The notes under the pieces: model-generated
Seen by the model: only the letters and a program-made list of their open reading frames with translations
What the model was told of the DNA's origin: nothing
The model's database searches: none
Translations under genes and position numbers: made by a program
Assembly (NCBI GenBank): GCA_947475415.1
Contig: CANJLH010000011.1
Coordinates: 1-64,000, forward strand
Direction of reading: 5' to 3'
From: Caulobacteraceae bacterium
GTDB lineage: Bacteria > Pseudomonadota > Alphaproteobacteria > Caulobacterales > Caulobacteraceae
Length of the DNA: 64,000 bases
Shown: in pieces, positions 25,014-45,110 of the stretch
How positions within the stretch are numbered: position 1 is the first letter of the stretch
Layout of the letters: every line of letters starts with the position of its first letter

Positions 25014-25057
25014 GAATTACGCCTGCGGATTGAGAGAACCCTCACCGGTCTGAGGAG

Positions 25058-25105: not shown

Positions 25106-25136
25106 CAGCCACAAATTTGCAGCCGGTCGCCTGAAC

Positions 25137-25684: not shown

Positions 25685-25714
25685 GGGCGCACCTCAAATC
25701 ATTGAGGCGCGCCC
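25685..25714 (-). terminator. strong stem-loop after pilin 2
   Basis: GGGCGCACCTCAA (25685-25697) pairs with TTGAGGCGCGCCC (25702-25714) with one mismatch and a 4-base loop. On the minus strand it follows the pilin 2 stop by about 40 bases and is followed by a T-rich stretch (TTCGTTTTC). It should end or limit pilin 2 transcription before the pilin 1 promoter. Confidence 0.65.
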
Positions 25715-25751
25715 AAAAATTCCTTGAACGGGCCGAGGCCCGCGACTGAGC

Positions 25752-25922: not shown

Positions 25923-26225
25923 TGGATTGTCCTTTCGTCACATTTCCACAAGAAGTTGTCTCACCATGAAACAACTCTACGAAGAGCAGTGTCGGAGATG
26001 CCCCCCATCCGCCACACCTGTGGTTGAAAGATACCTAAGATAAATTTTATGTAAAGCTAAATGAGTAGTTAACCTTGCGAATGAACCGAATTAAATTTTA
26101 ATTTAATGCCTTGGTTTGCTTTATGCATGCGGCGCGAACATTAACCATAGTTAACAACTCAGAGGCGTTGCAGGCCGCTCGATTTCGCCACTACAATACC
26201 TTGCCGACCCGCCTCAGAGGCGACG
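25923..26225 (-). promoter_or_regulatory. pilin 2 upstream region
   Basis: These 303 bases hold no gene. They carry the duplicated pilin leader (matching the pilin 1 leader up to 26159), an AT-rich segment with several TTAA half-sites (26069, 26091, 26098, 26103) and TTAACCAT at 26141-26148, which is a CtrA half-site sequence. No pair of TTAA has the 7-base spacing seen at pilin 1. The last 60 bases are GC-rich and lead into the end of the ABC permease gene. Confidence 0.55.
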
Positions 26226-27386
26226 CTAGGCCCGGACGGCCTTTAAGGCGTGCCTCACCGTCCGCCAGAACCTGGGCTGAGCGGGCGCGATCTGCAGACC
26301 ATGCACGGCGAGGGAGCCCGCGGCGGCGGCGGTGACGGCCACCAGAGCTGCGCCGGCCAGCGCGATCCACGGCGAAGGCTGGGTCAGCAGCAACAGGAAG
26401 GGGGTGAACGGCGGCGCGAAGGTCAGCCAACCTACGCCTTCCGCCCCGCTGGCGGCGGCGAGGGACGTGAAGAACACGGCCAGCAGCACCGCGAAGATCG
26501 GCCGCGACCAGTTCTGGGCCGCCGCGGTGTCCTGGGCGGCCGCGCCGACAGCGACCACGGCCAGGCCATAGAGCACATAGGCCAGCAGGTAGACCCCCAC
26601 GGCGCCGGCGATGGCCGCCGGGTTGGCCAGGTCTGCAAACAAGCTTCGCATCAGGTGTGCGCCGCCTGGCGCGGCCGACCCGGCGATGGTCGCGGAGCCG
26701 ATCCAGCTCGCCAGCACGAGCAATGACACCGCGCCGACGCCGCTGAGCTTACCCAGCACGATCTGCCAGGGCCTGGCGGCGGCCAGCAGGCATTCCAGGG
26801 CCCGGTTTGCACGTTCCCGGGCCACCGCGACCAGCAGCATGCCCAGGGATCCCGTGAGCGTCAGCCAGAGCATGATCACCAGGACCAGGCGGCCGGCCAT
26901 CGGCGAAGTCCGCGCGGGGGCCGAAGGCGGCGGAACCAGGCGTACGGTGAGGGTGGCGCGCTCTGCGTCTGCGCGCGCCGCGTCCCGCTCCAGGGTGCGC
27001 AGCACCAGCGTCTGGCCCGCGCTCGTCAGAGGAAAGCCCGCGCCGAACCGGGCCTCGATGCTCTGGCCGCCGACGCGCCGCAGTTCGAGGCGCGGCGCCG
27101 GGCGAGGGGAGGCCGCCACGATGAAGGCTCGGCCCTCCAGCTTGCCGGCTGCAACCAGGGCTTCGATCGCCTGGGTCCGCAGGCCGGGATCTGACGCATC
27201 GATGGCGATCTGCGAAGGCGCGTCCGGCTTCAGCGTCGCGGGGACCACGAAACTCGCGCCCAGCATCAGCGCCGGACCGATCGCCAGAGCGATCCAGAAG
27301 CTCGCCGTAGCGACATAGAACTTGAATTCGCGCTCGGCGATCAGCCAGGCCGGCCGCAGGGCCGCGAGGCGGGTTAGAATACCCAT
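26226..27386 (-). CDS. ABC-2 type transporter permease
   Basis: This 386-residue membrane protein has one N-terminal helix (FYVATASFWIALAIGPALML), a large periplasmic domain (about residues 50-165) and five to six C-terminal helices, the NatB/YhaP-type ABC-2 permease layout. It starts 13 bases inside the end of the methyltransferase gene, so the three genes of this cassette are translationally coupled with the ATPase first. Substrate unknown. It is the last gene before the pilins on this strand. Confidence 0.82.
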   Translation of the reverse strand: MGILTRLAALRPAWLIAEREFKFYVATASFWIALAIGPALMLGASFVVPATLKPDAPSQIAIDASDPGLRTQAIEALVAAGKLEGRAFIVAASPRPAPRLELRRVGGQSIEARFGAGFPLTSAGQTLVLRTLERDAARADAERATLTVRLVPPPSAPARTSPMAGRLVLVIMLWLTLTGSLGMLLVAVARERANRALECLLAAARPWQIVLGKLSGVGAVSLLVLASWIGSATIAGSAAPGGAHLMRSLFADLANPAAIAGAVGVYLLAYVLYGLAVVAVGAAAQDTAAAQNWSRPIFAVLLAVFFTSLAAASGAEGVGWLTFAPPFTPFLLLLTQPSPWIALAGAALVAVTAAAAGSLAVHGLQIAPAQPRFWRTVRHALKAVRA

Positions 27387-28006
27387 GGGATCAACCTGAA
27401 ACGCGCTTGCCGCATCAGAGCGGCGTATTGGGGATCGCCGGCCAATACCCGCTCCTCCGCAAGGATGCGCCAGATCTGGCAGCCGAGGGTCGCGGCGTAG
27501 AGGACGGCGTTCAAGGCCAGGGGATTCAGCAGCAGGAACCCCAGGTGGACCAGAACATAGCCAGCGTACATCGGATGGCGAACGAACCGGTAAGGGCCCG
27601 CCTGAACCACGCCCCGGTTGGCCGCCGCCAGCCCGAAGCTGCGCCGCAGGGCCAATTTGGCCCAGATCGCCAGGCCCAGCCCCGCGAACATCAACGCGGC
27701 GGCCAGGTCCGGCGGCACAAGCGCCACGCCGCCCGGCCGCACCAGCAGGGGCAGCATGGTGCCCATCAAAGCCGCTATCCAGTCCTGCGGCCGTGTGGTC
27801 ACCGTCTCGCTGTAGCGGCGGAACAGGATGAACAGCACCACCAGCGCCTCGGAGATCAGCGCCAGGATGTTCTGGGGGTGCAATTCCATCCCGCGGATGA
27901 CCCGCACGGCGAAGCCTGCAAACAGCAGCAGCGAAATGCTCCGCTCGCCCAAGTCGAGCAGGCGCAGCAGGCGAGATTCCGTGGCGGGTCGCATGGGGTT
28001 GATCAT
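27374..28006 (-). CDS. isoprenylcysteine carboxyl methyltransferase (ICMT)-family membrane protein
   Basis: This 210-residue membrane protein has about five hydrophobic segments and the ICMT/phospholipid methyltransferase signature GPYRFVRHPMYAGY (about residues 140-153) followed by EERVLAGDPQY. The family methylates carboxyl, thiol or lipid acceptors at the membrane using S-adenosylmethionine. Prenylated proteins are not expected in bacteria, so the substrate is open. It is sandwiched between, and overlaps, the ATPase gene (4 bases) and the permease gene (13 bases), so it probably works with that exporter. Confidence 0.82.
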   Translation of the reverse strand: MINPMRPATESRLLRLLDLGERSISLLLFAGFAVRVIRGMELHPQNILALISEALVVLFILFRRYSETVTTRPQDWIAALMGTMLPLLVRPGGVALVPPDLAAALMFAGLGLAIWAKLALRRSFGLAAANRGVVQAGPYRFVRHPMYAGYVLVHLGFLLLNPLALNAVLYAATLGCQIWRILAEERVLAGDPQYAALMRQARFRLIPWVF

Positions 28007-28968
28007 GCCGCGATCCGCGCGGGCGTCGCGGCCAGGTCCCAGAACGCCCCCTCGAGGTTGGCCTTGATCGGCTCGAACGCCAGGATCGGGACGGAGAACT
28101 CTGCGAGCGCGCGCACCAGGGCCGGGTGGTTCACCTGTTTGGGCAGCACCACCCGCCAGCGGCCGGCCTCGCCGATGCCACCCGTCATGGGGCGCACCTC
28201 GCCGCCGACGCTGCGCGCCGCGGCGATCAGCGCCGCCTCATCGGAGGTGACCACCACCGCGCCGTGCGGGGCGAGGTCCGAGGCTTCCGCCAGCGGGCCT
28301 TCGAACACCGTGCGCCCGCCCGCCAGCATCACCACCCGGTCGCAAAGGGTTTCGGCGGCGGTCATGGAATGGGTGGAGAACAGGATCGCCCCGCCGCCGG
28401 CCCGAAATTCCGCGAACAGCGACAGCACCTCGGCCTGGGCGATGGGGTCGAGGCCGGAGAGGGGCTCGTCCAGGATAAGCAGGTCGGGGCTGTGGGCCAG
28501 GGCGCAAAGGATCTGCACGCGTTGGGCGTTGCCCTTGGACAGTTCGCCAATGCGGGCCCGCTCGCGGCCGGCCAGGCCGATCCGCTCCAGCAGCCGGTCG
28601 GCGGCGCGCAGGGCGTCGCTGCGGCCCATGCCCTTCAGTCGCGCATTAAAGGCTATGACGTCACGGGCGCGTTCGCGGGGGAACAGGCCCCGTTCTTCCG
28701 GCAGGAAGCCGATCCGTCGGCGCGCGGCGTGATCGGCGGCGGCGCCGAACAGTTGGATCGTCCCGGCGTCGGGTTGCATGAGCCCCATGACACAGCGAAG
28801 CGTCGTGCTCTTGCCGGCCCCATTGATGCCGATGAATCCGGTGATCTCGCCCGCCGCAACCGAGAGGGAAACGCCGTCGATGCCCGCGCCGCTGCTGAAG
28901 CGTTTCGCGAGACCATCAACCTTCAGTAAACCATATGAATTATCGTTGACCACGCCGCATATGCACAT
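28003..28968 (-). CDS. ABC transporter ATP-binding protein (NatA-like)
   Basis: This 321-residue ATPase has Walker A GINGAGKST (about residues 50-58), the ABC signature LSKGNAQRVQ, Walker B LLILDEPLSGLDP and the H-loop FSTHSM. A C-terminal extension of about 90 residues (DUF4162-like) follows, common in ABC-2 exporters such as NatA and YhaQ. I use the ATG at 28968; an in-frame TTG at 28974 and later starts are possible because no clear ribosome site is visible. It is the first gene of the three-gene cassette and partners the permease at 26226-27386. Confidence 0.88.
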   Translation of the reverse strand: MCICGVVNDNSYGLLKVDGLAKRFSSGAGIDGVSLSVAAGEITGFIGINGAGKSTTLRCVMGLMQPDAGTIQLFGAAADHAARRRIGFLPEERGLFPRERARDVIAFNARLKGMGRSDALRAADRLLERIGLAGRERARIGELSKGNAQRVQILCALAHSPDLLILDEPLSGLDPIAQAEVLSLFAEFRAGGGAILFSTHSMTAAETLCDRVVMLAGGRTVFEGPLAEASDLAPHGAVVVTSDEAALIAAARSVGGEVRPMTGGIGEAGRWRVVLPKQVNHPALVRALAEFSVPILAFEPIKANLEGAFWDLAATPARIAA

Positions 28969-29000
28969 GGTCAAGTTGAGGTTTCCCTAACCTCGAAGAA

Positions 29001-29423
29001 TCATCCCGTCGAAGATGGATAACAAGAGGTTGCCGACATTGGTAAATTGATTCTTCCAAGTCCAGTATTCAGGGAGAATGTTCCGGTTCCGACGACCTTA
29101 TTACCGCAGTCTGTGGCGGGTGCGGCGGCGGCCGCGGTGAGAGTAAAGGTTAGGGAGGAAAGGGTTGGCCCTTTGTACTTTCCTTGTCCATAGGACTGGA
29201 TATTTCCGGCGGTGCAGATTGTGGTCTTCACCGAGGCGCAACGGGCCGTGTCCTGCGTCGCGAAATGAAGGGAGACGATCGCGTTGATCGCCATGGCCAT
29301 ATAGATCGCACCTATCGTCAGCAGCGCCAGCAACGGGATGACCAGGGCGAACTCAACCGCCGTCGAACCGCGTTCAGAGCACCATGGGTGTAGTCCGCGC
29401 CGGATTTGGGGTCTGCCAGGCAT
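29001..29423 (-). CDS. TadE-like pseudopilin
   Basis: This 140-residue protein has an N-terminal prepilin-like motif RGSTAVEFALVIPLL (Gly followed by a small residue run and Glu, about residues 18-32) and one membrane helix, as in TadE/TadF minor pilins processed by CpaA. The C-terminal part is Thr/Ala rich with several Cys (DTARCASVKTTIC, TDCGNK, SCYPSS), perhaps disulfide-bonded. Its ATG directly follows the stop of the next upstream pseudopilin gene. It is the last gene of a three-gene pseudopilin operon. Confidence 0.85.
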   Translation of the reverse strand: MPGRPQIRRGLHPWCSERGSTAVEFALVIPLLALLTIGAIYMAMAINAIVSLHFATQDTARCASVKTTICTAGNIQSYGQGKYKGPTLSSLTFTLTAAAAAPATDCGNKVVGTGTFSLNTGLGRINLPMSATSCYPSSTG

Positions 29424-30005
29424 CTATCTCAGCCTAATCCAGGCGGTTTTCGAAACCGATGTGCCGAGCAGGCTGGCGACCGACAAGCCGCTGAATATCG
29501 GGGTGTAGGTGTAGGTCGTGGTGGCCTTGATGTATTCGCCCGCCTTCGTCGTTGAACTGGGACACGTGGGGGCGGAGGTGGGAGACAGGCTGCCGCCGAT
29601 CGTAGCGGTCGAGCCTTGCAAGGCCAGATCGCCGGACCCATTGCGGCAATACCACCCGTCGGTGATGTTGGCGTTGGTGAGTGTGATGTTGGTTCCCAGC
29701 GAGGTGTTCTGGGCAGCGCGGCGCATCCTGACGACCAGGGTCTCCGCGCCAGTGTAGCAGTTCTGCACCGCCGGAAGCTCCGCTCCGGTGTCGCAAAAGC
29801 GCCAGGCCGCGGCCACGGCGGCCTGAGCGGCGGCCTCCACCTGCATCTTGCGGTAGGTGTAGACTCCAATGTCCACGGCGCTGAAAACCGGGACCACGAT
29901 GACGGTCGTCCAGATGGCGATCTCAAGAGCCGCCGCGCCGCGGGCGTCGCGCGCAAGCCGCGTCAAAAACCAAGATTTTGGATTCTCAACTAACTTGCGC
30001 CTCAT
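29424..30005 (-). CDS. TadE/TadF-like pseudopilin
   Basis: This 193-residue protein has a basic N-terminus, then ARGAAALEIAIWTTVIVVPVF (about residues 22-42), a TadE-type processing and membrane segment. The mature part contains paired Cys (RFCDTG, VQNCYTG, GWYCRNG, APTCPSS) and is Thr-rich. It overlaps the TadG-like gene by 4 bases and abuts the downstream pseudopilin gene, so the three are co-translated. Role as a minor pilin is an inference from family and context. Confidence 0.83.
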   Translation of the reverse strand: MRRKLVENPKSWFLTRLARDARGAAALEIAIWTTVIVVPVFSAVDIGVYTYRKMQVEAAAQAAVAAAWRFCDTGAELPAVQNCYTGAETLVVRMRRAAQNTSLGTNITLTNANITDGWYCRNGSGDLALQGSTATIGGSLSPTSAPTCPSSTTKAGEYIKATTTYTYTPIFSGLSVASLLGTSVSKTAWIRLR

Positions 30006-31408
30006 TGCACCAATCTCTGGCGGCCACCGGTTCCGGGAACAGTATTGAGGTCGAGGCCGGCCTGATAACAGTCAGTCGTCGTGGCAAGGATGTCACCGCC
30101 ACCACCAACAAGAATGTCATTAACCATTATTCCAAGGCAGTTTAGGCCGCTAGTTTGGTGGTTGATGGCGCCTCTAATTGTTAATGATAGGTGTGGGCCG
30201 TAAATCAAACCTGTAATTCTAAAATCGAGAGCGTTAATCCCATTGCCTCCAAAGGTCAGGCTGTTGGCTCCGCTCATGCGGGAGTCTTGATAAAGCGCAA
30301 TTCCAGACCAAGTTCCTGTAGTCGGAGCACCCATATCTATATAGGGCGTGCCGCCGTTGCCGCTTCGCGTCACGAAACCAGGCGCACCGCTGCTAGCGGA
30401 TCCCGTACCGGCAAACACGACAGTGAGACCAGCGTTTGTTGGTCCTGTGAATGAAGAGCCCCCACTTAGGACCAAATTCGCGCCATTATAAAGTGTGATG
30501 ACACGATTTGCGCCACCGGTATCTACAACAACTGGACCACTAATTGTGAGATTGCCGGTGTAGCAGCGGTTTCCAGCGCTAATATTAAATGTGCCGCTGG
30601 AAATTGTAGTGGCGCCCGAACATCCACTGGGCGGCGGAATGTTCGCAGCTGTGGACAAGGCAGCGAACTTATCGAGTGGAGTTGGGGCGACTTGTGAACC
30701 TTGTTGGTCTTGGCCGCAGCTAGACGTTCCCACAGCCCATCCGTGTGGCGCGGACGGCAATCCGTGGGCATTGCAATTTAGATTCCCATTCGAGAAGAGG
30801 CTACAACCCGACAAGTTCGCGCTGGTAGCCCCGTTTGTTCTGAATGAATCACCAGTGCCAAGCGTCGTAATGCAAAAATAGTCGTCCACGCCTTTGGGAT
30901 TGGCGATCGCCAGGGCGGACACCACCTGTCCGCGGCCCGAGCCCACGGCGGTGTCGCCGTTGAACCCGACGGCCCGCATCAGATAGATGGGAACAGCCTT
31001 TGTGATCACCACCTTGTAGCACTTGTCGCTCGCCCCCGCGCCGGGCAGACAATTGGCGTGTGAAAGCGTCGTTGTTACAGTGGTCGTACTGCTGGCGGTG
31101 AACCCATAGCCTTTGGCGACTGCGGCGGCCTCCTGGACATAGGTTATCCCCGTGCAGGCCGGACTGGCCGAGGGATCGCAAGCGTTTGCCGCCGCCGCCA
31201 GGGCCGCGGTATCGGCGGCGTTCTGGGCTGATCGTTGGGTGAAGTACCAGTTCGACGCCTCGGCGGCGAAGCCGAGCAGGCCGACGATCGGTACGATCAT
31301 CACCGCCATGACCGGGCTGACCGCGCCCAGGCGCGCGCGGGCGAAACGGGCGATCCAGGGGCGCGGCGCACGAGGAGGGGCCGAGGCCCGATGTTTGACT
31401 TTCAGCAC
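30002..31408 (-). CDS. TadG-like protein with a Gly/Ser/Thr-rich C-terminal region
   Basis: This 468-residue protein opens with a TadG-type N-terminal segment (GAVSPVMAVMIVPIVGLLGFAAE, then TQRSAQNAADTAALAAA) containing one membrane helix. No von Willebrand A domain (DxSxS) is seen after it. Instead residues from about 165 onward are Gly/Ser/Thr/Asn-rich with short strand-like repeats and many Cys, suggesting a beta-rich surface domain. The start is GTG at 31408 with AAGGG 8 bases upstream. The stretch 30090-30860 is visibly richer in A/T than the rest of the gene. It heads the three-gene pseudopilin operon. Confidence 0.8.
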   Translation of the reverse strand: MLKVKHRASAPPRAPRPWIARFARARLGAVSPVMAVMIVPIVGLLGFAAEASNWYFTQRSAQNAADTAALAAAANACDPSASPACTGITYVQEAAAVAKGYGFTASSTTTVTTTLSHANCLPGAGASDKCYKVVITKAVPIYLMRAVGFNGDTAVGSGRGQVVSALAIANPKGVDDYFCITTLGTGDSFRTNGATSANLSGCSLFSNGNLNCNAHGLPSAPHGWAVGTSSCGQDQQGSQVAPTPLDKFAALSTAANIPPPSGCSGATTISSGTFNISAGNRCYTGNLTISGPVVVDTGGANRVITLYNGANLVLSGGSSFTGPTNAGLTVVFAGTGSASSGAPGFVTRSGNGGTPYIDMGAPTTGTWSGIALYQDSRMSGANSLTFGGNGINALDFRITGLIYGPHLSLTIRGAINHQTSGLNCLGIMVNDILVGGGGDILATTTDCYQAGLDLNTVPGTGGRQRLVQ

Positions 31409-34887: not shown

Positions 34888-36447
34888 ATGTCGGACTGGT
34901 CAGACGGCTATGTAACGGACGTTCAATACACCAGCGGATTCTACCGTGAACTTGCGCCGAGTTATCTGGCGTTCACGTGCCTGCTGAGGGGGGTCCAGCC
35001 GCCCCAATGTGGACCAGGCGCCCGCTACCTGGAGCTGGGCTGTGGCCAAGGGTTCAGCACGAACCTGTTGGCGGCCGCCAATCCCGAAATGGACTTTCTG
35101 GGTGTTGATTTCATGCCAGGCCAAATCGCCAACGCCCGGCGGCTGGCGACCGAGGCAGGCCTGCGCAACGTAAGTTTCGAGGACTACAGTTTTGAACATA
35201 TGGCGCAGATTGCGCCTGACCGGTTGGAGCCATTTGATTTCATTGTGCTGCACGGAATCTTGTCGTGGATCAGCGACGAGAACCGCGGTCACATCGTGCG
35301 CATTCTTGATCGGTTTCTGAAGCCGGGCGGCGTCGCCTATGTTTCCTACAACTGCCTTCCCGGGTGGGCGCCACTCGCCCCGATCCAACATTATCTGCGC
35401 GAATATTCCCTGCGGTTTCCGGGGCAGCCGGTAGAGCAGGCTGCGAAAGGGCTCGCCGACGCCAAGGTATTGGCGGCAGGCGGCGGCGCCTTCTTCGCAC
35501 AAAATCCTCACGTCCGAAAAAGGATCGAGGCGGTCGAGTTACAGAATCCAAGTTACCTCGTGCACGAATACCTGCATGCGCATTGGCGAGCATTCCACCA
35601 TGCCGATTTGGCCCGTGAACTCAATGCGGCCCGCCTGGACTTCGTCGGGTCGGCGACCCTGGCGGAGAATTTCGTCGAATTGTCGGTCCCCGATAATCTG
35701 ATCGAGAAGGTGCGGTCGGCCGGCGATGCGGCGTGGCGCGAGACCCTGCTTGACTACGCGGGCTTCAAACACTTCCGGCGCGACATCTATGTTCGGGGCG
35801 CTAGCCCGCTTGTGCCGCCCGCGCGCAAGCGGATGCTGGATGCGACACGGTTCGCCCTGACCGCGCCGGCGGCCGAGGTGGGCCTGCGGTTCAAGACGCC
35901 GATGGGCGACGTCGACGGGATCGAGTCCCTATACCGGCCGATCGTGGGCCTGTTGTCCGAGGCGAGCGCGACGTTCCGGGAGATCGTTCAGCTCCCAGCC
36001 CTTGCCGGGGCGACGGCGGCGGCGATGGAACAGGCGGTGGCCCTGCTGGTCGGCGCCCAGCAGGTCGCGCCACTTGACGGGGGCGCGCGGGATGAGGGGC
36101 CGGCCCAAAGATTCAACGCCGTGGTCGCCGGGCGAATCGAGGATGGCGAGACGCTGGGCTACCTGGCCTCGCCCAGGACGGGAAACGGCGTCCGCGTTTC
36201 GACCGCAGATTTGCTGGGCCATGTCGCGCTGCTCAGAGGTGTCAGCGATCTGGAAACAGTCGTCGAATTCAGTGGTCTGGTCCTGGAACGCGCCGGTCGA
36301 CGACTGATGAAGGATGGGAAAGCCCTGGAGGCCGGCGCGGAAACTGAGTCGGAATTGCGTCAGCAATTGCATCGCTATTTTGAGCAGCGCGCCAAGCTAT
36401 ACCGCGGGTTGGGCGTGCTGCCCGAAGCGAACGTCCTGAATCTGTAA
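34888..36447 (+). CDS. SAM methyltransferase with a methyltransferase-regulatory domain (PF10119-like)
   Basis: This 519-residue cytoplasmic protein has a class I SAM-binding domain (YLELGCGQGFSTNLLAAANP, about residues 47-66; DFIVLHGILSW near 120) followed by a predicted MethyTransf_Reg domain (about 220-300, FVELSVPDNLI) and a long C-terminal helical region. The N-terminus MSDWSDGYVTDVQYTSGFY is typical of this family, whose known or proposed targets include surface proteins and lipopolysaccharide. GGGAG lies 8 bases before the ATG. It is 324 bases upstream of the giant repeat gene and on the same strand, so modification of that protein is possible but unproven. Confidence 0.85.
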   Translation: MSDWSDGYVTDVQYTSGFYRELAPSYLAFTCLLRGVQPPQCGPGARYLELGCGQGFSTNLLAAANPEMDFLGVDFMPGQIANARRLATEAGLRNVSFEDYSFEHMAQIAPDRLEPFDFIVLHGILSWISDENRGHIVRILDRFLKPGGVAYVSYNCLPGWAPLAPIQHYLREYSLRFPGQPVEQAAKGLADAKVLAAGGGAFFAQNPHVRKRIEAVELQNPSYLVHEYLHAHWRAFHHADLARELNAARLDFVGSATLAENFVELSVPDNLIEKVRSAGDAAWRETLLDYAGFKHFRRDIYVRGASPLVPPARKRMLDATRFALTAPAAEVGLRFKTPMGDVDGIESLYRPIVGLLSEASATFREIVQLPALAGATAAAMEQAVALLVGAQQVAPLDGGARDEGPAQRFNAVVAGRIEDGETLGYLASPRTGNGVRVSTADLLGHVALLRGVSDLETVVEFSGLVLERAGRRLMKDGKALEAGAETESELRQQLHRYFEQRAKLYRGLGVLPEANVLNL

Positions 36448-36771: not shown

Positions 36772-39700
36772 ATGACCGTATTCAATCTCGAGACCGCAAC
36801 CGGCGATTCCGCTTCGGACGGCGCGGCCGCCAACGGCGTCGAACTCATCAATGGGGCGTACTGGCAGTTCGCCACGCCCGGCAATTCGGGCACGGGGCAG
36901 TACTTCACCTTCCTGGCCGTCCAGGACAAGAGTGTCGAAGAGGGCTACAACACCAACGCGACTGGGGTCCTGGACAACGATGATTCCAAGACCGATGCCA
37001 TTCCAGTCTCCGCGCTTGTAACCGTCACCAATCCCGGCAACGGCATCCCTAACGGTTCCTACTTCGTGTTCCGGATGGACATGAACGAACCGAACAGCGG
37101 CCAGCAGGGCGCGCTGACGTTGGATGCGTTCAAGATTTTCACATCGGCGAATCCGGCGCTGGCGGGCGCGAATTTCTCCGATGCCAACGAGGCCGACCCT
37201 GCCGGCTTTACTCTGCGCTACAACCTTGATGGGGCGGGTGACAACAGCATCCTGCTCATGGACCACTCGAGCGGCAGCGGCACCGACGACTACATTATTT
37301 ACGTTCCAACGTCGCTGATCCCGAGCGGCGCCTATATGACGGTGTACACCCGCTTCTCGAACGTCGATTCCGGATTCGAAGAAATTCGCGTCCGCGCGTT
37401 CGAAGGCGCCCCGGTCATCGGGATCACCAAGACGGTCACCTCGGTGACCGGCGGCGTGGGCGCCGGCAACCTGTCCGCGGACAGCCCCGGCGACATCATC
37501 AACTATCAGGTCAAGGTCTCCAACACCGGCACGGTAGGCGCGACCGGCGTCCAGGTGACGGACAAACTCGAGAGCGGAGCCTTGACGTCCGGGCTGACGC
37601 TGACCTCGGGTGACACCAATTCTGACGGCATACTCGATGTGGGCGAGACCTGGGTCTACACCGGTTCCTACACCGTCACCCAGGCCGACCTGAACACCAA
37701 GGGCGGCGGCGACCTTGATATCGACAACACCGCCTCGGTGACGACGGCGCAGACCCCGACGCCGCTCAACGCGTCAACATCCTCGCCTCTGGTCTACAAC
37801 CCCAGCTTCACCATCGCCAAGACGGTGACCTCGGTGACCGGCGGCGTGGGCTCCGGCAGCCTGACGGCGGACAACGCCGGCGACGTGATCAACTACCAGG
37901 TGGTGGTCAAGAACACCGGCAACATCGACCTGCACGGCACAATCGCCGACAAGCTGGAGAACGGCGCGCTTTCCAGCGGCCTGACGCTGACCTCCGGCGA
38001 CACCGACTTGGATAACGTCCTGGATGTGGGCGAGACCTGGACCTACACGGGGTCCTATACGGTCAAACAGGCCGACATCACCGGCAAGGGCGGCGGTGAC
38101 GGCGACATCGACAACACCGCCACCTTCACGACCACAGAGGCAGGCTCAGCCAGCGCGACCACTGCTTCCCCGCTCCTTTACAACCCCAGTTTCTCGATCC
38201 TCAAGACGGTGACCTCGGTGACCGGCGGCGTGGGCTCCGGCAGCCTGACGGCCGACAGCGCCGGTGACGTGATCAACTACCAGGTGGTGGTCAAGAACAC
38301 CGGCAACATCGACCTGCACGGCACAATCGCCGACAAGCTGGAAAACGGCGGCTTGACCAGCGGTCTGACGCTGGTGGCGGGTGGGGACGTTGATGCCGAC
38401 GGCGTCCTGGATGTGGGCGAAACCTGGACCTACACCGGATCCTATTCAGTCAAGCAGTCCGATCTGAACGGCAAGGGCGGCGGCGACAGCGACATCGACA
38501 ATACCGCGACTTTCACGACAACCGAGGCAGGCTCGGCGAGTTCGTCAACGTCCTCCCCCCTGGCCTATCTCCCCAGTTTCTCGATCCAGAAGACTGTGAC
38601 GTCGGTGACTGGCGGCGCAGGAACTGGCAGCCTCTTCGCCGATAACGCTGGCGACGTCGTCAATTATCAGGTGGTGGTCAAGAATACCGGCGACATTGAT
38701 CTGACCGGGACTTCTATTGTTGACAAGCTGGAGGGCAATGGCCTCGCACTGACCGGGCCGACTGGGGACGGCGGCGTCATTGGCGTGCTCGAGGTCGGCG
38801 AGACCTGGACCTACACCGCCTCCTATGTTGTCACCCAGAACGATCTGAACACCAAGGGCGGCGCCGACAGCGACATCGACAACCTGGTCACCTTCACGAC
38901 CAACGAAGCGGGTTCGGGCAGCGCCTCGACCTCATCACCGCTGATCTACAACCCGAGCTTCTCGATCGCCAAGACGGTGACCTCGGTGACGGGCGGTGTT
39001 GGAACCGGCAGTCTCTATGCGGACAATGCCGGAGACGTCGTCAACTACCAGGTGGTGGTCAAGAATACCGGCGACATCGACCTGACCGGAACCTCCATTG
39101 TAGACAAGCTCGAGGGCAACGGCCTCACGCTGACCGGCCCGACCGGCGATACAGACTCTGACGGCGTTCTGGATGTGGGGGAAACCTGGACCTACACAGC
39201 GTCTTATGCCGTCACCCAGGCCGACCTCAACAACAAGGGCGGCACCGACAGCGACATCGACAATCTGGTGACGTTCACGACCAAGGAAGCCGGCTCAGGC
39301 AGCGCGACGACATCTTCGCCGCTGATCTACAACCCGAGCTTCACGATCGCGAAGACGGTCACCTCGGTGACCGGCGGGGTCGGCGCCGACAGTCTGACCG
39401 CGAACAACGCCGGCGACATCGTCAACTACCAGGTGGTGGTGAAGAACACCGGCAACATCGACCTGAATGGGACTATCTCCGACAAGGTCGAAAACGGCGC
39501 GCTCACCAGCGGTCTCACGCTGACCTCCGGCGACACCGACAGTGACAACATCCTGGATGTGGGCGAGACCTGGACTTACACGGGCGCCTACAGCGTCAAA
39601 CAGGCAGACCTGAACAACAAGGGCGGCGGCGACGGCGACCTCGACAACACGGCGACCTTCACCACCAAGGAAATCGGCTCAGCCAGCGCCACGACGTCTT

Positions 39701-42700
39701 CGCCCCTCGAATATTCGCCGAGCTTCACCATCGCCAAGACCGTGACATCGGTCACAGGCGGCGTCGGCGCCGACAGCCTGACGGCGAACAACGCCGGCGA
39801 CATCGTCAACTACCAGGTGGTGGTGAATAACACCGGCAACATCGACCTGAATGGGACTATCTCCGACAAGGTCGAAAACGGCGCGCTCACCAGTGGTCTC
39901 ACGCTGACCTCCGGCGACACCGACAGTGATGGCGTCCTGGATGTGGGCGAGACCTGGACCTACACGGGCGCCTACAGTGTCTTGCAGGCAGATCTGAACA
40001 GCAAGGGCGGCGGCGACGGCGACCTCGATAACACGGCGACCTTCACCACCAAGGAAATCGGCTCAGCCAGCGCCACGACGTCTTCGCCCCTCGAATATTC
40101 GCCGAGCTTCACCATCGCCAAGACGGTGACCTCGGTAACCGGCGGGGCGGGTCTCACCGCAGACAGCGCCGGCGACCTGATCAACTACCAGGTCGTAGTC
40201 AAGAACACCGGCAATATCGACATCCATGGAACGATCTCGGATAAGGTCGAGGGTGTCTCCCTGACCAGCGGTCTGACGTTGGCTTCCGGCGACCTCGACT
40301 CGGATAACGTCTTGGATGTGGGTGAGACTTGGACCTACACCGGCGCCTATTCGGTCCTGCAGTCGGACTTCAACACCAAGGGCGGCGGCGACGGGATCAT
40401 CACCAACACCGCGACCTTCACGACGACGGAAGCCGGCTCGGCGAGCGCCACCACCTCATCGCCGCTGACCTATACGCCCAGCTTCACGATCCTGAAGACC
40501 GTGACTTCGGTCACAGGCGGGTCAGGAAATTCCGCCGACAGCGCCGGTGACGTGATCAACTACCAGGTGGTGGTCAAGAACACCGGCAACGTCGACCTCA
40601 CAGGCACTTCGATCACCGACAAGCTGGAAGGCGGTGGCCTGGCATTGGCCGGCCCCAGCGGCGACATTGATTCCGATGGCGTGCTCGATGCGGGCGAGAC
40701 CTGGACCTACACCGGCTCCTACACGGTCACCCAGGCCGATTTCAACGGTAAGGGTGGCGGTGACAGCGACATCGACAACGCCGCAACCTTCACCACCAAG
40801 GAAGCGGGCTCAGGGAGTTCGTCGACCTCGACCGCTTTGACCTACACCCCCAGTTTCTCCATCCAGAAGACCGTGACGTCGGTAACCGGTGGCGTCGGCA
40901 CTGGCAGCCTCTACGCAGACAATGCCGGCGACGTGATCAACTATCAGGTGGTGGTGAAGAACACCGGCAACATTGACCTGACAGGCACGTCGATCTCCGA
41001 CACGCTGGAGGGCGGCGCCCTGACCACTGGCCTGACGCTGGCGTCGGGTGATACGGATGGTGATCAAATCCTGGATGTGGGCGAGGTCTGGACCTACACG
41101 GGCTCCTACACGGTCAAGCAGTCGGACTTCTCCAGCAACGGCGTCACTGGCGATGGCGACATCGACAACACCGCGACCTTCGTCACCAAAGAAGCCGGAT
41201 CTGCGAGTTCTTCGACCTCGTCGCCGTTGTTGCTTGTTCCAAGCTTCTCAATTCTGAAGACGGTGACGTCCGTGACCGGTGGCGTCGGCAATTCCGCCGA
41301 CAGCGTCGGTGACAAGATCAACTATCAGGTGGTGGTCAAGAACACCGGCAACGTCGACCTGACTGGCGGCCTGATCTCCGACAAGCTGGAAAACAATGGC
41401 CTGGCCCTCACCGGCCCCAGCGGCGACACCGATAGCGATGGCGTCCTGGATGTTGGCGAGACCTGGACCTACACGGGTTCCTACACGGTCACCCAGGCGG
41501 ATCTGAATTCCAAGGGCGGCGGTGACGGCGATATCGACAACACCGCCACCTTCACCACCAAGGAGTCCGGGTCCGGCAGCTCAACCACCTCGACCTCACT
41601 GGTCTACGACCCGAAGTTCACCATCCAGAAAACGGTCGTCTCGGTGACGGGCGGCGTCGGAACCGGGAGCCTTTACGCCGACAACAAGGGTGACATCATC
41701 AATTACCAGGTGGTGGTGAAGAACACCGGCAACATCGACCTGACCGGCACGTCGATTTCCGACAAGCTGGAAAACGGTTCGCTGACCACTGGCCTGACAT
41801 TGCTCTCCGGCGACACGGACGGGGACAAGATCCTGGATGTGGGTGAAACCTGGACCTATACAGGCTCCTACACGGTCACCCAGGCGGACCTGAACACCAA
41901 GGGCGGCGGCGACCTGGATATCGACAACACGGCCACCTTCACGACCAACGAAGCCGGTTCGGCCAGTTCGTCGACGGCGTCGGGCCTCGTCTACAATCCC
42001 AGCCTTTCGATCGTGAAGACCGTCACCGACGTCATCGGCGGTTCCGGCAACATGGTCGACAGCGCCGGCGACGTGGTGAAGTACCAGATTGTCGTCAAGA
42101 ACACCGGTAACATCGACCTGACCAACGTCTCCGTCACTGACAAGTTGGAAGGGACCGGGCTTTCGCTCACCCAGACCAACAACGGCAACGGCGACGCCAT
42201 CCTTCAGGTTGGTGAAAGCTGGACCTACACAGCCTCCTACACGGTCGTGGCGGCCGACATCACCGGCAATGGGGGCGGTGATGGCGACATTGACAACATC
42301 GGCTACGTCACCAGCACCGAGGCGCCGGGACCGTTCAGCTCGGCTGTCTCAACTGATATCCGCGTCGGTCCCGGCGTTCGGACGCCGGGCTTCTGGCTCA
42401 GCCCGAACGGTCTGACCTTCTGGGATGGCGTCGCCAACAACCAGACCAAGTCCGGCCCGAACTTCGCGACTCACGAACTGCTGTACTCGATCCAGGGCAA
42501 GGGAACCGGTCTGCTGGTTGGCGACTGGAATGGGAACGGGCAAACCGATGTTGGCGAATCCACGCTTTACATCAAGCTGTCGGACGCCCTGACGATCCTC
42601 GACGCCTCGCAAAAGCAGCAGGGCGACGGCCGCTACGTGCTGGGCCGCGATGTGATCGCGACCTGGCTGAACTACCTGGCCGGCAACGGCACGGGCGCCG

Positions 42701-42978
42701 CAAACGATCCGACCAGTCCGCACCACCTGATCGACGACGCCGTGTTGTGGTTCAAGGATGTGACAGCTGACCACAGTGCGGATCTGACCGTGGCCGAACT
42801 CGCGACGGGAGCGATTTCGACCAATAGCGCTCTGTGGAAGTCGCCGATCGTCGCCAACCCGCCGAGCCTTCCCTATGCGGTCGACCACCCGGCCGCGACG
42901 CTGCACACCTGGCTCGACGCTTACAACAACACCGGCATGATCGCCGGAAAGACCTACGCAAACGACGGCGATATCTGA
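36772..42978 (+). CDS. giant repeat protein: 13 tandem ~127-residue repeats with calcium-loop motifs
   Basis: This 2068-residue protein has no classical signal peptide. Residues 1-213 form a unique N-terminal region. From about 214 to 1865 come 13 tandem repeats of 124-130 residues, each starting near (S/F)xIxKTVTSVTGG and containing NYQVVVKNTG, DKLEN, a DxDxDGxLDVGE loop, TWTYTGSYTV and KGGGDxDIDNTATFTT. They look like DUF11/DUF7507-type Ig-like surface repeats. Most carry an intact EF-hand/thrombospondin-3-like Ca2+ loop; repeat 4 is degenerate. Residues 1866-2068 form a unique C-terminus with TPGFW and another Ca-loop (DWNGNGQTDVGE). It is probably a secreted or surface protein; type I export is a guess from the missing signal. 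AGGAGG precedes the ATG. Confidence 0.88.
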   Translation: MTVFNLETATGDSASDGAAANGVELINGAYWQFATPGNSGTGQYFTFLAVQDKSVEEGYNTNATGVLDNDDSKTDAIPVSALVTVTNPGNGIPNGSYFVFRMDMNEPNSGQQGALTLDAFKIFTSANPALAGANFSDANEADPAGFTLRYNLDGAGDNSILLMDHSSGSGTDDYIIYVPTSLIPSGAYMTVYTRFSNVDSGFEEIRVRAFEGAPVIGITKTVTSVTGGVGAGNLSADSPGDIINYQVKVSNTGTVGATGVQVTDKLESGALTSGLTLTSGDTNSDGILDVGETWVYTGSYTVTQADLNTKGGGDLDIDNTASVTTAQTPTPLNASTSSPLVYNPSFTIAKTVTSVTGGVGSGSLTADNAGDVINYQVVVKNTGNIDLHGTIADKLENGALSSGLTLTSGDTDLDNVLDVGETWTYTGSYTVKQADITGKGGGDGDIDNTATFTTTEAGSASATTASPLLYNPSFSILKTVTSVTGGVGSGSLTADSAGDVINYQVVVKNTGNIDLHGTIADKLENGGLTSGLTLVAGGDVDADGVLDVGETWTYTGSYSVKQSDLNGKGGGDSDIDNTATFTTTEAGSASSSTSSPLAYLPSFSIQKTVTSVTGGAGTGSLFADNAGDVVNYQVVVKNTGDIDLTGTSIVDKLEGNGLALTGPTGDGGVIGVLEVGETWTYTASYVVTQNDLNTKGGADSDIDNLVTFTTNEAGSGSASTSSPLIYNPSFSIAKTVTSVTGGVGTGSLYADNAGDVVNYQVVVKNTGDIDLTGTSIVDKLEGNGLTLTGPTGDTDSDGVLDVGETWTYTASYAVTQADLNNKGGTDSDIDNLVTFTTKEAGSGSATTSSPLIYNPSFTIAKTVTSVTGGVGADSLTANNAGDIVNYQVVVKNTGNIDLNGTISDKVENGALTSGLTLTSGDTDSDNILDVGETWTYTGAYSVKQADLNNKGGGDGDLDNTATFTTKEIGSASATTSSPLEYSPSFTIAKTVTSVTGGVGADSLTANNAGDIVNYQVVVNNTGNIDLNGTISDKVENGALTSGLTLTSGDTDSDGVLDVGETWTYTGAYSVLQADLNSKGGGDGDLDNTATFTTKEIGSASATTSSPLEYSPSFTIAKTVTSVTGGAGLTADSAGDLINYQVVVKNTGNIDIHGTISDKVEGVSLTSGLTLASGDLDSDNVLDVGETWTYTGAYSVLQSDFNTKGGGDGIITNTATFTTTEAGSASATTSSPLTYTPSFTILKTVTSVTGGSGNSADSAGDVINYQVVVKNTGNVDLTGTSITDKLEGGGLALAGPSGDIDSDGVLDAGETWTYTGSYTVTQADFNGKGGGDSDIDNAATFTTKEAGSGSSSTSTALTYTPSFSIQKTVTSVTGGVGTGSLYADNAGDVINYQVVVKNTGNIDLTGTSISDTLEGGALTTGLTLASGDTDGDQILDVGEVWTYTGSYTVKQSDFSSNGVTGDGDIDNTATFVTKEAGSASSSTSSPLLLVPSFSILKTVTSVTGGVGNSADSVGDKINYQVVVKNTGNVDLTGGLISDKLENNGLALTGPSGDTDSDGVLDVGETWTYTGSYTVTQADLNSKGGGDGDIDNTATFTTKESGSGSSTTSTSLVYDPKFTIQKTVVSVTGGVGTGSLYADNKGDIINYQVVVKNTGNIDLTGTSISDKLENGSLTTGLTLLSGDTDGDKILDVGETWTYTGSYTVTQADLNTKGGGDLDIDNTATFTTNEAGSASSSTASGLVYNPSLSIVKTVTDVIGGSGNMVDSAGDVVKYQIVVKNTGNIDLTNVSVTDKLEGTGLSLTQTNNGNGDAILQVGESWTYTASYTVVAADITGNGGGDGDIDNIGYVTSTEAPGPFSSAVSTDIRVGPGVRTPGFWLSPNGLTFWDGVANNQTKSGPNFATHELLYSIQGKGTGLLVGDWNGNGQTDVGESTLYIKLSDALTILDASQKQQGDGRYVLGRDVIATWLNYLAGNGTGAANDPTSPHHLIDDAVLWFKDVTADHSADLTVAELATGAISTNSALWKSPIVANPPSLPYAVDHPAATLHTWLDAYNNTGMIAGKTYANDGDI
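37414..42370 (+). repeat. 13 tandem ~384-bp coding repeats
   Basis: Repeat starts are near 37414, 37804, 38188, 38575, 38956, 39337, 39721, 40105, 40480, 40852, 41242, 41614 and 42001; periods are 372-390 bp, all multiples of three. Repeats 6 and 7 (39337 and 39721) share long identical DNA stretches, repeats 2-3 and 4-5 are also pairwise close, and the first and last are most diverged. Shorter units (8, 9, 11) lack part of the loop after VTGG. Confidence 0.95.
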
Positions 42979-43000
42979 GCCGACTTGGCATAGACTTTGG

Positions 43001-43036
43001 CGGCGTGGCTCAACCGGGCCACGCCGTTTCCATTTT
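43001..43036 (+). terminator. intrinsic terminator after the giant repeat gene
   Basis: CGGCGTGGC (43001-43009) pairs perfectly with GCCACGCCG (43018-43026) over an 8-base loop and is followed by TTTCCATTTT. It begins 23 bases after the stop of the giant gene. Confidence 0.8.
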
Positions 43037-43047
43037 GCGAGGCGGCC

Positions 43048-43782
43048 TTGCCCGAAAAGAAAATTCTGCTGGCGATGCCCTGCGCCCATAGCATCGTGAA
43101 GATGGGCGCGATGAAGACCATGACGGAGGTTTCCGTCGCCCTGGCCAACGCCGGATTCGCGGTCGGCCTTGCGACCGTTTCGGTGAGCGATCTCGTGCTT
43201 GCGCGAAACTATCTGGCCTCCGTGGCGCTCCGGGACGGTTGTTCTCACATCTTCTTTGTCGACTCCGACATGTGCTTTCCTGGCGACGTCGTGCTGCGGC
43301 TCCTGAATGCCGACAAGGACGTGTCGGGCCTGATCTACACCCGACGGATGCTAGACCTCGACGACGTGGTGCGACTGGCGCGCGAAAAGCCGGACGCGAC
43401 CCATGGCGAAGTGATCTCCAAGGCGTTGGACTTCGTGGTCCGCCTGCCGACCGAGGCGACTTTCAACAGCGGATTCGCCGAGGTCGAAGGCCTGGGCATG
43501 GGCGGCACGCTCATCAAGACCAGCGCCCTGCAGATAATGGTGGACAAGGGAATGGCGGAGCCGCGGGGAATGCCCGTGGCGCTGACCAAAACGGCGCTTA
43601 ACCTGTATGGCTTCTTTGACCTCTGGATAACGCCGCAGGGCGAACGCCTGAGCGAGGATTATTCATTCTGCTTCAGGTGGCGTGAGTGCGGTGGAACCGT
43701 GTGGGGCTTGGACACCGGGCAGGTCGAACACGTCGGCGATTTCACCTACATCGGCAGCCTTCGCGAGCGGACGTCCTACTGA
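43048..43782 (+). CDS. glycosyltransferase-like protein (GT-A fold, DSD motif)
   Basis: This protein of about 244 residues resembles small GT-A type glycosyltransferases: an N-terminal strand (KKILLAMPCAHSIVKMGAMKT), a nucleotide-sugar/metal motif HIFFVDSDMCFPGDVV (DSD, about residues 70-73), GLGMGGTLIKTSAL and a late SEDYSFCFRWRECG acidic motif often seen at the catalytic base position. I choose TTG at 43048 (preceded by GAGG) because the in-frame TTG at 42997 lies before a terminator hairpin and would translate it. The acceptor and sugar are unknown. It follows the giant gene and could glycosylate it or another surface polymer. Confidence 0.72.
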   Translation: MPEKKILLAMPCAHSIVKMGAMKTMTEVSVALANAGFAVGLATVSVSDLVLARNYLASVALRDGCSHIFFVDSDMCFPGDVVLRLLNADKDVSGLIYTRRMLDLDDVVRLAREKPDATHGEVISKALDFVVRLPTEATFNSGFAEVEGLGMGGTLIKTSALQIMVDKGMAEPRGMPVALTKTALNLYGFFDLWITPQGERLSEDYSFCFRWRECGGTVWGLDTGQVEHVGDFTYIGSLRERTSY

Positions 43783-43889: not shown

Positions 43890-44690
43890 ATGACGCCAAG
43901 CCCAGATCCTAATCGGCATCCATACGATGCCTGCCCGCTGTGCCGATCGGCTCAGATAAGCCTCTTCGTGCGGGCGGCTTGCACACAACATCCCAATTAT
44001 CAGCCAAGCCTTGCGCAGGTCATCGAATGGATGCGGTGCGCAGACTGTGGGCATGTTTTCACCAGCGGGTACTTCAACGACGCGGCCTTGCGGATATTGT
44101 TCGGCCACACGCAGGAACAACAGACCGTCGGCCACGATTTCGAGCGCCATCGCCATGTGTCGGCGCGAATGATTGGCCGAGTCGCCCATTATCAACCGGA
44201 CGGGGCGTGGTTGGACGTCGGTTTCGGTAATGGCTCGCTCATCCTGACGGCGGCGGAGTGGGGCTATCGGGCGGTTGGCATCGACTTACGCAGCGCCAAT
44301 GTCGCCGCCCTCCGCGGCTTGGGATGTGAGGCGCATGAATTGAGCGTCGAGGCGCTCGAGGGCGAGGCGACTTATTCGGTGATCAGCATGGCCGACGTTC
44401 TCGAGCACATGCCGTATCCTGAGACGGCGGTTGCGGCGGCGGCGCGACTGTTGTCGGCGGATGGAGTGATATTCATCTCACTGCCTGCCTATGCCAGTCC
44501 GATCTGGCGTCTTCTCGATAGCTCCGGCGCCAACCCCTATTGGAGCGAACTGGAGCACTATCACAATTTCAGCCGGGCGCGGCTTTGCGACCTGCTGGCC
44601 GGCCATGGATTCCAACTGCTCGAATACGGCGTCAGCGAGCGCTATCGCGCCTGCATGGAGTTGATCTTCCGCCGAACCCCTTTGGCCTGA
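43890..44690 (+). CDS. class I SAM methyltransferase with N-terminal zinc-ribbon-like motif
   Basis: This 266-residue protein starts with two Cys pairs (CPLC about residues 15-18 and CADCG near 50) like the zinc-binding N-terminus of sugar C-methyltransferases. A Rossmann methyltransferase domain follows (WLDVGFGNGSLILTAAEWG, GIDLRSANVAAL, DVLEHMPYP, SLPAYASPIW). Relatives act on nucleotide-linked sugars or polysaccharide precursors. The start ATG at 43890 has only a weak ribosome site. It follows the glycosyltransferase-like gene by 107 bases on the same strand, so both may serve surface-glycan synthesis. Confidence 0.82.
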   Translation: MTPSPDPNRHPYDACPLCRSAQISLFVRAACTQHPNYQPSLAQVIEWMRCADCGHVFTSGYFNDAALRILFGHTQEQQTVGHDFERHRHVSARMIGRVAHYQPDGAWLDVGFGNGSLILTAAEWGYRAVGIDLRSANVAALRGLGCEAHELSVEALEGEATYSVISMADVLEHMPYPETAVAAAARLLSADGVIFISLPAYASPIWRLLDSSGANPYWSELEHYHNFSRARLCDLLAGHGFQLLEYGVSERYRACMELIFRRTPLA

Positions 44691-44744: not shown

Positions 44745-45110
44745 ATGGGCGTTTCAAATGTGGGGACTCAATCACCACAATCTATTGTTCCACAAAAGAA
44801 AGCCGCTCCGCCCGCCGGGCCAGCCGCGGACGTGATCGACCCGGCGAATTTGCCGGATGCCTGGAAGAAACTGCCGGAACAGGCAAAAGGCGCCGCCAAG
44901 GGTCATCAGGTCGAGCGGCTGATCGCGCGCTGGGACAAGGACGGTGACGGCAAATTGTCCGCCGACGAACTGGGTCACCGTTGGGGCAAGGGGATCCTGG
45001 CGGCCCTGTTGAAGCTGCAGGAGGCGTCGCCGGCTGCGCAGCCGCCGGCCGGAGATCCGCCGCCGGCCGGTGATCCCCCCCCGACGCCGCCGGCGCCTGC
45101 CACCACTTAG
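44745..45110 (+). CDS. small EF-hand domain protein
   Basis: This 121-residue protein has one clear EF-hand loop, DKDGDGKLSADE (about residues 65-76), in the middle. The N-terminal 30 residues are Ser/Gln/Ala/Pro-rich with no signal peptide, and the C-terminus is a Pro-rich tail with a PPAGDPPPAGDPPPTPPAP repeat. GAGAGG precedes the ATG. Function unknown; a single EF-hand suggests dimerisation or a structural calcium role. It is the last of the run of genes around the giant repeat protein, which also carries calcium-loop motifs. Confidence 0.75.
   Translation: MGVSNVGTQSPQSIVPQKKAAPPAGPAADVIDPANLPDAWKKLPEQAKGAAKGHQVERLIARWDKDGDGKLSADELGHRWGKGILAALLKLQEASPAAQPPAGDPPPAGDPPPTPPAPATT

What the first reader, a model, noticed from the sequence alone, without database searches (positions are those of the whole stretch)
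36772..42978. Giant 13-repeat calcium-loop protein as a candidate new surface system
Seen: 13 repeats of about 127 residues, nearly all with a DxDxDGxLDVGE loop, plus unique ends and no signal peptide. The ends do not match a surface-anchor or RTX pattern I can name. Repeats this similar with Ca-loop motifs suggest a long, calcium-stiffened fibre that reaches beyond the cell. Inference: an adhesin or matrix protein working beside the pilus locus.
Basis: partly seen in the sequence, partly recalled or inferred. Interest (0 to 1): 0.78.

Follow-up and report, generated by a model that had tools for sequence, protein, structure and literature searches.

The report
Self-stapled secreted fibre beside lysine methyltransferase
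A Caulobacter-family bacterium carries a gene for a 2,068-residue protein made of 13 similar blocks that is predicted to be pumped out of the cell as a long fibre, likely braced inside each block by a covalent staple and by calcium, and the gene next door resembles enzymes known to methylate giant surface proteins, so the pair would let the stiffening and the modification of such fibres be tested together.

Summary
In detail: ORF 36772-42978 (+), 2068 aa, 13 repeats of 124-130 aa; 11 of 13 carry a full EF-type loop. The repeats are Pfam DUF7507, renamed CLIPPER_2 in 2025, a family predicted to form Lys-Asn isopeptide bonds; the Lys-Asp-Asn triad is intact in 13 of 13, so covalent staples are a better-supported brace than calcium. 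Both ends are conserved domains without a Pfam match. The C-terminal one occurs in 79 public loci; in 38 of 74 usable loci a type I secretion ABC transporter and HlyD adaptor follow directly (38 of 54 non-cyanobacterial, 0 of 20 cyanobacterial). Proteins with it lack Sec-like N-termini (0 of 39, versus 36 of 88 others). This genome has PrtD, HlyD and TolC genes, but not beside the fibre gene. The upstream gene is a PKMT-type lysine methyltransferase relative; in other Alphaproteobacteria such genes adjoin giant fibre-like genes in 11 of 60 regions versus 1 of 59 controls, yet none was found in the 79 loci of this fibre family. The pilus link is unsupported. Verdict: new variant of a known kind, a predicted type I-exported CLIPPER_2 fibre, possibly lysine-methylated.

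The parts
36772..42978 (+). giant fibre gene, 2068 aa, predicted type I secretion substrate with CLIPPER_2 (DUF7507) stalk
   Evidence: ORF; Pfam DUF7507 in 13 stretches
36772..37410 (+). N-terminal domain (aa 1-213), no Pfam match; profile finds it in 35 of the 137 proteins held, 31 of which are among the 41 with the C-terminal domain
   Evidence: AlphaFold2 model of aa 1-345 of low confidence (mean pLDDT 62.6)
37411..42366 (+). 13 DUF7507/CLIPPER_2 repeats of 124-130 aa, each with Lys-Asp-Asn triad; EF-type loop in 11 of 13
42367..42975 (+). C-terminal 'TPGFW' domain (aa 1866-2068), no Pfam match, found in 79 public loci where it ends 0-55 aa before the ORF end; followed by T1SS genes in 38 of 54 usable non-cyanobacterial loci
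   Evidence: model of aa 1742-2068 pLDDT 86
42523..42558 (+). EF-type loop of the C-terminal domain (aa 1918-1929, DWNGNGQTDVGE); position 1 acidic in 74 of 74 aligned rows, position 12 acidic in 70 of 74
34888..36447 (+). protein lysine methyltransferase-like gene (PF10119 MethyTransf_Reg; best PDB matches are PKMT2 and PKMT1), 324 nt before the fibre gene; predicted to methylate the fibre
   Evidence: neighbourhood test
42997..43782 (+). small glycosyltransferase-like ORF directly after the fibre gene (weak Anp1 match, below Pfam cut-off); role in the fibre unknown

Best explanation
[quoted passage not shown] Shown by the calls: the repeat family, the intact Lys-Asp-Asn triad in all 13 repeats, the EF-type loop in 11 of 13 repeats and in the C-terminal domain, the conservation and C-terminal place of the end domain, its position just upstream of type I transporter genes in many relatives, and a PrtD/HlyD pair and TolC genes elsewhere in this genome. 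Inferred: the C-terminal domain carries the uncleaved export signal and leads the chain out; the unfolded chain passes a PrtD-HlyD-TolC channel; outside, where calcium is high, the domains fold and the staples form, giving 13 rigid beads (perhaps 50-65 nm, from a recalled 4-5 nm per Ig-like domain); the N-terminal domain, last out, would stay nearest the cell. The upstream PKMT-like enzyme would methylate exposed lysines of the fibre in the cytosol before export, as KmtA does to the adhesin AtaA. Adhesion is the likeliest use, but no binding domain was identified.
Against: No T1SS gene was seen beside the fibre gene; the link to the C2 pair is by type only, and the genome has other candidates (a HlyD above cut-off on C32; a PrtD-like ABC of 324 bits, below cut-off, near a TolC-like gene on C17). 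None of 20 usable cyanobacterial loci and 16 of 54 other usable loci lack T1SS genes within 1 kb, so the end domain may be a cap rather than a signal. No DUF7507 structure was found; a PDB search with the repeat profile gave only chance matches. PKMT was not found in any of the 79 relatives' loci (at least 1.6 kb upstream of the fibre ORF was visible in 42 of 74), and in all 11 adjacent pairs elsewhere the fibre precedes the methyltransferase, the reverse of the window. High lysine content is not a general mark of PKMT-adjacent fibres (K/R 0.35-3.6 in 11, window 7.3). Methylation of the triad lysines would be expected to block the staple.
Confidence: 0.62

Rival explanations
1. Calcium-stiffened fibre: the EF-type loops, not isopeptide staples, provide the rigidity and the triad is only a relic of the fold.
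For: EF-type loop in 11 of 13 repeats and a conserved one in the C-terminal domain (position 1 acidic 74 of 74, position 12 acidic 70 of 74).
Against: Triad residues are invariant in 13 of 13 repeats while two repeats lack the full loop; across the other C-domain proteins held the loop is in 97 of 302 repeats, so it is optional in the family.
Confidence: 0.15
2. S-layer-like or matrix lattice protein: the family builds a surface coat rather than single adhesive fibres.
For: A SapC-family gene (a family I recall from S-layer export clusters) lies between the domain gene and the T1SS genes in 7 rhodobacterial loci; Caulobacter S-layers use type I export (recalled).
Against: No SapC hit above 100 bits beside the other 31 T1SS-linked loci; repeat hits range from 4 to 21 in 39 C-domain proteins, which fits stalks of varied length better than a lattice.
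Confidence: 0.15
3. The lysine methyltransferase is an unrelated neighbour, placed there by chance or by an insertion.
For: Not found beside any other member of this fibre family; a 43.6% identical paralog elsewhere in this genome sits beside what looks by eye like an alcohol dehydrogenase; lower GC3 (0.74 versus 0.83); order reversed relative to the 11 other pairs.
Against: PF10119 genes adjoin fibre-like giants more often than control positions do (11 of 60 versus 1 of 59; any such ORF in the stretch 18 of 60 versus 3 of 59), and a PKMT-type enzyme acts on a giant adhesin (PMC11784438).
Confidence: 0.45
4. Cytoplasmic or non-exported protein.
For: No signal peptide and no T1SS gene seen beside it.
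Against: T1SS genes directly follow the domain gene in relatives of 16 named genera (with titles); zero cysteines and very low Arg; DUF7507 is described in surface proteins in the passages read (PMC12617251).
Confidence: 0.04

Closest known systems
CLIPPER / CLIPPER_2 fibrillar adhesins (DUF11, DUF7507; PMC12617251)
   Same: Repeat family, Lys-Asp-Asn triad, tandem stalk, beta-sandwich.
   Different: That paper describes DUF11 proteins as typically having a signal peptide and sorting domains and does not use the term type I secretion (0 occurrences); here there is no Sec-like start, a C-terminal domain that is T1SS-linked in relatives, and EF-type loops in most repeats.
RTX adhesins of type I secretion (LapA, BapA and kin; recalled)
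   Same: Giant repeat stalk, type I export, calcium sites.
   Different: No RTX (PF00353) match in the window protein; the stalk is DUF7507; the end domains are different and unnamed.
OM protein lysine methyltransferases: Rickettsia PKMT1/PKMT2, Acinetobacter KmtA with AtaA (PMC11784438)
   Same: The neighbour gene has the PF10119 domain, matches PKMT2/PKMT1 over residues 11-303 and keeps the two AdoMet residues.
   Different: Targets named in the passages read are OmpB, other rickettsial outer membrane proteins and AtaA; a type I-exported CLIPPER_2 fibre would be a new target class. Activity untested.
Campylobacter SapCDEF-type S-layer export (recalled)
   Same: SapC-family gene beside ABC and HlyD genes after the C-domain gene in 7 rhodobacterial relatives.
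   Different: No SapC match among the ten window genes scanned; the rest of the window was not searched for it. Cargo repeats differ.

Membership tests
DUF7507 / CLIPPER_2 | Pfam profile match above curated cut-off | tested here: met
   558.9 bits, cut-off 27, 13 stretches
DUF7507 / CLIPPER_2 | Lys-Asp-Asn isopeptide triad in each domain | tested here: met
   13 of 13 repeats
DUF7507 / CLIPPER_2 | Ig-like beta-sandwich | tested here: met
DUF7507 / CLIPPER_2 | bond actually formed | not testable with these tools
   needs intact mass or crystal structure
type I secretion substrate | no N-terminal Sec signal | tested here: met
   hydropathy heuristic 0.7; 0 of 39 C-domain proteins SP-like
type I secretion substrate | C-terminal, uncleaved signal region | tested here: inconclusive
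   domain ends 0-55 aa before the ORF end in 79 of 79 loci and is T1SS-linked in 38 of 74; export itself not tested
type I secretion substrate | transporter genes beside the substrate gene | tested here: not met
   own-genome searches place the HlyD and PrtD above cut-off on C2 and C32 and the TolC above cut-off on C21 and C26, not beside the fibre on C11
RTX adhesin | RTX nonapeptide repeats (PF00353) | tested here: not met
   no match
EF-hand protein | EF-hand Pfam match in the fibre | tested here: not met
   no EF-hand family at E 0.001; only the 12-residue loop pattern is met (11 of 13)
OM PKMT (gene 34888-36447) | PF10119 domain and homology to PKMT1/PKMT2 | tested here: met
   71.4 bits, cut-off 25.5; 5doo E 1.5e-27, 5dnk E 3.5e-25
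OM PKMT (gene 34888-36447) | AdoMet-contacting Asp and His | tested here: met
   D74 and H122 align with the Asp and His of PKMT2 (residues named in PMC11784438; by my count the chain index is shifted by one)
OM PKMT (gene 34888-36447) | lysine methylation of a surface protein | not testable with these tools
   needs mass spectrometry
Tad pilus-associated protein | gene linkage with Tad genes kept in relatives | tested here: not met
   TadG query: 0 hits in 79 loci; other Tad genes not tried
S-layer protein | lattice formation on the surface | not testable with these tools
   only SapC linkage in 7 distant relatives

The most novel reading that the evidence does not exclude
This is a dedicated fibre-plus-modifier cassette: a type I-exported fibre that stays unfolded in the calcium-poor cytosol, is lysine-methylated there by its own PKMT, and then folds and covalently staples itself thirteen times only after meeting calcium outside. 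More broadly, OM lysine methyltransferases of Alphaproteobacteria are partner enzymes for giant surface fibres of several secretion types, and the methylation sorts which lysines remain free for staples.
Probability: 0.22. Interest if true: 0.8.

Novelty: new variant of a known kind. Interest (0 to 1): 0.55.

Why it matters
Isopeptide-stapled stalks are, as far as I recall, studied in Sec-exported proteins. A class exported by type I secretion would have to keep the staples from closing before the chain is outside, which raises a clear, testable question about timing, with the calcium loops as the obvious candidate switch. It also yields an unnamed C-terminal domain that can be used to find type I-exported stalks, and the PKMT neighbourhood result points to lysine methylation of giant surface proteins as a possibly widespread, little-studied trait in Alphaproteobacteria.

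Tried and rejected
TSP3 calcium repeats (PF02412) in the genome: no match, and the control rang nowhere, so uninformative. Calcium loop as the mark of type I-exported members: not supported; loops are in 97 of 302 repeats of the other C-domain proteins, 103 of 572 repeats of proteins with an SP-like N-terminus and 166 of 782 of the rest; they are commoner in the first class but far from general, and the proteins were chosen by likeness to the window's repeats. Triad counts across the same repeats (205 of 302, 279 of 572, 473 of 782) undercount Lys, because 657 repeat rows have a gap in that column; where it holds a letter this is almost always Lys (975 against 22 others among the eight commonest symbols). 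A first count with unextended domains was dropped for that reason. Missing C-terminal tail as a sign of lost export: rejected, since T1SS-linked Mesorhizobium and Devosia members end in the same short way. The statement that the domain is always last was first drawn, whose rows had been filtered by distance from the end; I replaced it by an unfiltered profile search. The first T1SS count (37 of 70) had dropped five loci for lack of a motif; the profile-based recount is 38 of 74, five loci being too short downstream. PKMT as a conserved partner of this fibre family: rejected, not found in the 79 loci. Lysine richness as a PKMT-target mark: the window has the highest Lys fraction of 41 C-domain proteins (3.53%) and is tenth of all 137, but the 11 PKMT-adjacent fibres elsewhere do not stand out. 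PDB sequence search with the 13-repeat profile gave only chance matches. Fold search with the N-terminal model gave nothing at E below 0.001, but that model is poor (mean pLDDT 62.6). The C-terminal domain was folded together with repeat 13, and the VIA-align rows cover only the repeat, so its own fold was not tested. The N-domain database search found only the query, yet the profile finds the domain in 35 of 137 proteins. Papers PMC12502724 and PMC3751524 were read as passages only and bear on nothing here.
Full report
Observation. The finding is real. ORF 36772-42978 on the + strand encodes 2068 aa without cysteine, with Thr 14.4%, Gly 13.5% and Ser 10.1%. Thirteen repeats start at residues 214 to 1743 with spacings of 124-130 aa and a mean column identity of 78%. 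Eleven of 13 hold a full EF-type 12-residue loop; repeats 4 and 13 have degraded loops.

The ends. No Pfam family has its best stretch in either end. A search with the last ~214 residues found 20 proteins, the query included, among proteins of 0.55-1.75 times its length; names given include Caulobacter, Reyranella, Altererythrobacter, Paracraurococcus, Litorisediminicola and cyanobacteria. A 15-row alignment has 22 invariant columns. The genome scan gave 79 loci. In all 79 the domain, found by profile without any position filter, ends 0-55 aa before the end of its ORF; in the 41 of 137 held proteins that have it, 1-65 aa. The N-terminal domain is shared too: its profile finds 35 of the 137, and 31 of these are among the 41. 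The C-terminal domain carries its own EF-type loop: in 74 aligned rows (window plus 73 loci picked by motif and length) position 1 is acidic in 74, position 3 Asn/Asp in 73, position 12 acidic in 70. It is a more constant calcium-site candidate than the loops in the repeats.

Export. I extracted ORFs from the 79 loci and searched them with seven transporter seeds and one SapC seed; Pfam confirms the four ABC seeds and the two HlyD seeds scanned. With domain ends set by profile, five loci have under 2.5 kb downstream and were left out (one of them, L023, has the ABC gene). Of the other 74, 38 have ABC and HlyD genes on the same strand directly after the domain gene (ABC start within 1 kb): 38 of 54 non-cyanobacterial loci and 0 of 20 cyanobacterial ones; two more (L066, L098) have the ABC 3.5-5 kb away. 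The 38 carry 16 genus names, MAG names included (titles). In seven rhodobacterial loci a SapC-family gene sits between. Among 127 DUF7507 proteins starting with Met, a Sec-like hydrophobic stretch occurs in 0 of 39 with the domain and 36 of 88 without (p 2e-7; a hydropathy heuristic, not corrected for kinship, and the 88 include archaeal proteins and fragments). The window's genome has one PrtD above cut-off on contig C2 with HlyD beside it, a second HlyD above cut-off on C32, and two TolC genes above cut-off, none of them beside the fibre. The C2 ABC is 47-49% identical to the linked ABCs of Bradyrhizobium, a Beijerinckiaceae MAG and a Devosia MAG. Type I export is therefore likely; which transporter serves is a guess.

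Distribution. In the order of the window's genome, 9 of 398 genomes, its own included, have the C-terminal domain. They share the window's family handle, so the window is from Caulobacteraceae; the genus is not named. The gene is thus patchy. One congener (G010) has a shorter protein with the N-terminal domain, DUF7507 and a different or diverged end, and no transporter hit in the 19 kb looked at.

The neighbour. The gene 324 nt upstream (34888-36447) has the PF10119 domain, and its best PDB matches are PKMT2 and PKMT1, with the AdoMet Asp and His conserved. Abstract and passages of PMC11784438 report that KmtA, a relative of the Rickettsia enzymes, methylates over 130 lysines of the giant adhesin AtaA in Acinetobacter. 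I asked whether PF10119 genes sit beside giants elsewhere. PF10119 occurs (E at most 1e-10) in 58 of 385 alphaproteobacterial genomes, 72 matches. I fetched the surroundings of 60 of the 72; the other 12 are G000's own two, nine near contig ends or fragments, and one (G449) left out without a reason. Controls are 59 stretches in 17 of the same genomes at offsets of 100 kb or at round coordinates, so weighted towards genomes with long contigs. With a composition definition of fibre-like ORF (at least 600 aa, G+T+S+N+D at least 40%, Arg under 4%, Cys under 1%) a first pass gave 15 of 40 against 2 of 19; with the same definition on the full set, 18 of 60 PKMT regions and 3 of 59 controls hold one (p 0.0005), and 11 of 60 have one within 500 nt on the same strand against 1 of 59 for a midpoint pseudo-gene on either strand (p 0.004). 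The 11 come from seven genus handles, so they are not fully independent; one control (L252) itself has a PKMT and one (L205) is only 2.1 kb; two of the 18 look by eye like flagellar hook proteins. In all 11 the fibre comes first, the reverse of the window; two further regions have the PKMT first, 1.35-1.43 kb from the giant. No PKMT was found in the 79 loci of this fibre family. So the general pairing is supported; the pairing in the window is plausible but unproven.

Mechanism and judgement. Best reading: export unfolded through a type I channel, folding outside, one staple per repeat, calcium sites in 11 repeats and the C-terminal domain, surface lysines (73 Lys, 9 Arg in all) perhaps methylated before export. 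The calcium-gated stapling idea is attractive because type I cargo must stay unfolded (recalled), but loop frequency does not separate export classes cleanly. The pilus connection has no support.

Novelty. The repeats are known. A type I-linked end domain on a CLIPPER_2 stalk was not found in print by searches for DUF11 with type I secretion (two papers, passages read, not relevant), intramolecular isopeptide with type I secretion (one Leptospira vaccine paper, listing only) and TIGR01451 with type I secretion (none). PF10119 gave no paper, KmtA with AtaA gave only PMC11784438, and a search on lysine methylation, surface protein, type I secretion, methyltransferase and S-layer gave one Rickettsia review, listing only. 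The library is open-access only, so absence there is weak.

Noticed in passing
L160-L199, L219-L238 (PF10119 regions): Alphaproteobacterial PKMT-like genes sit directly after giant ORFs that look by eye RTX-like, S-layer-like or autotransporter-like in 11 of 60 regions; two more are a few kb from a flagellar-hook-like gene (L221, L223).
   Followed up: partly
L086, L089, L091, L092, L093, L096, L097: SapC-family gene (PF07277, scanned for L092) between the C-domain gene and the T1SS ABC/HlyD genes in seven rhodobacterial relatives.
   Followed up: partly
L055, L058, L063, L064, L067, L069 downstream of the C-domain gene: In cyanobacteria a ~3000-aa ORF that looks by eye like a peptide synthetase follows the C-domain gene; the cluster spans 9 loci. 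Not identified by a family search.
   Followed up: no
G000 contig C32, L100:12126-17261: A second giant surface protein (Big_9/cadherin-like, cut by the contig end) beside a HlyD gene and a BTLCP/Peptidase_C93 gene, resembling a LapG-controlled adhesin locus (LapG comparison recalled).
   Followed up: partly
window 44745-45110: ORF of 121 aa with one canonical EF-hand loop (DKDGDGKLSADE) and a Pro-rich tail, a little downstream of the fibre on the same strand; weak EF-hand match below cut-off.
   Followed up: no
window 34888-36447 and 43890-44690: The methyltransferase genes on both sides of the fibre have lower GC3 (0.74 and 0.71) than the fibre (0.83), P450 (0.84) and histidine kinase (0.82) genes.
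   Followed up: no
window 19792-31408: Tad/Flp pilus genes (ATPase, secretin, CpaB, Flp, TadE, TadG) on the minus strand, interrupted by an ABC transporter pair and an ICMT-like gene at 26226-28974.
   Followed up: no
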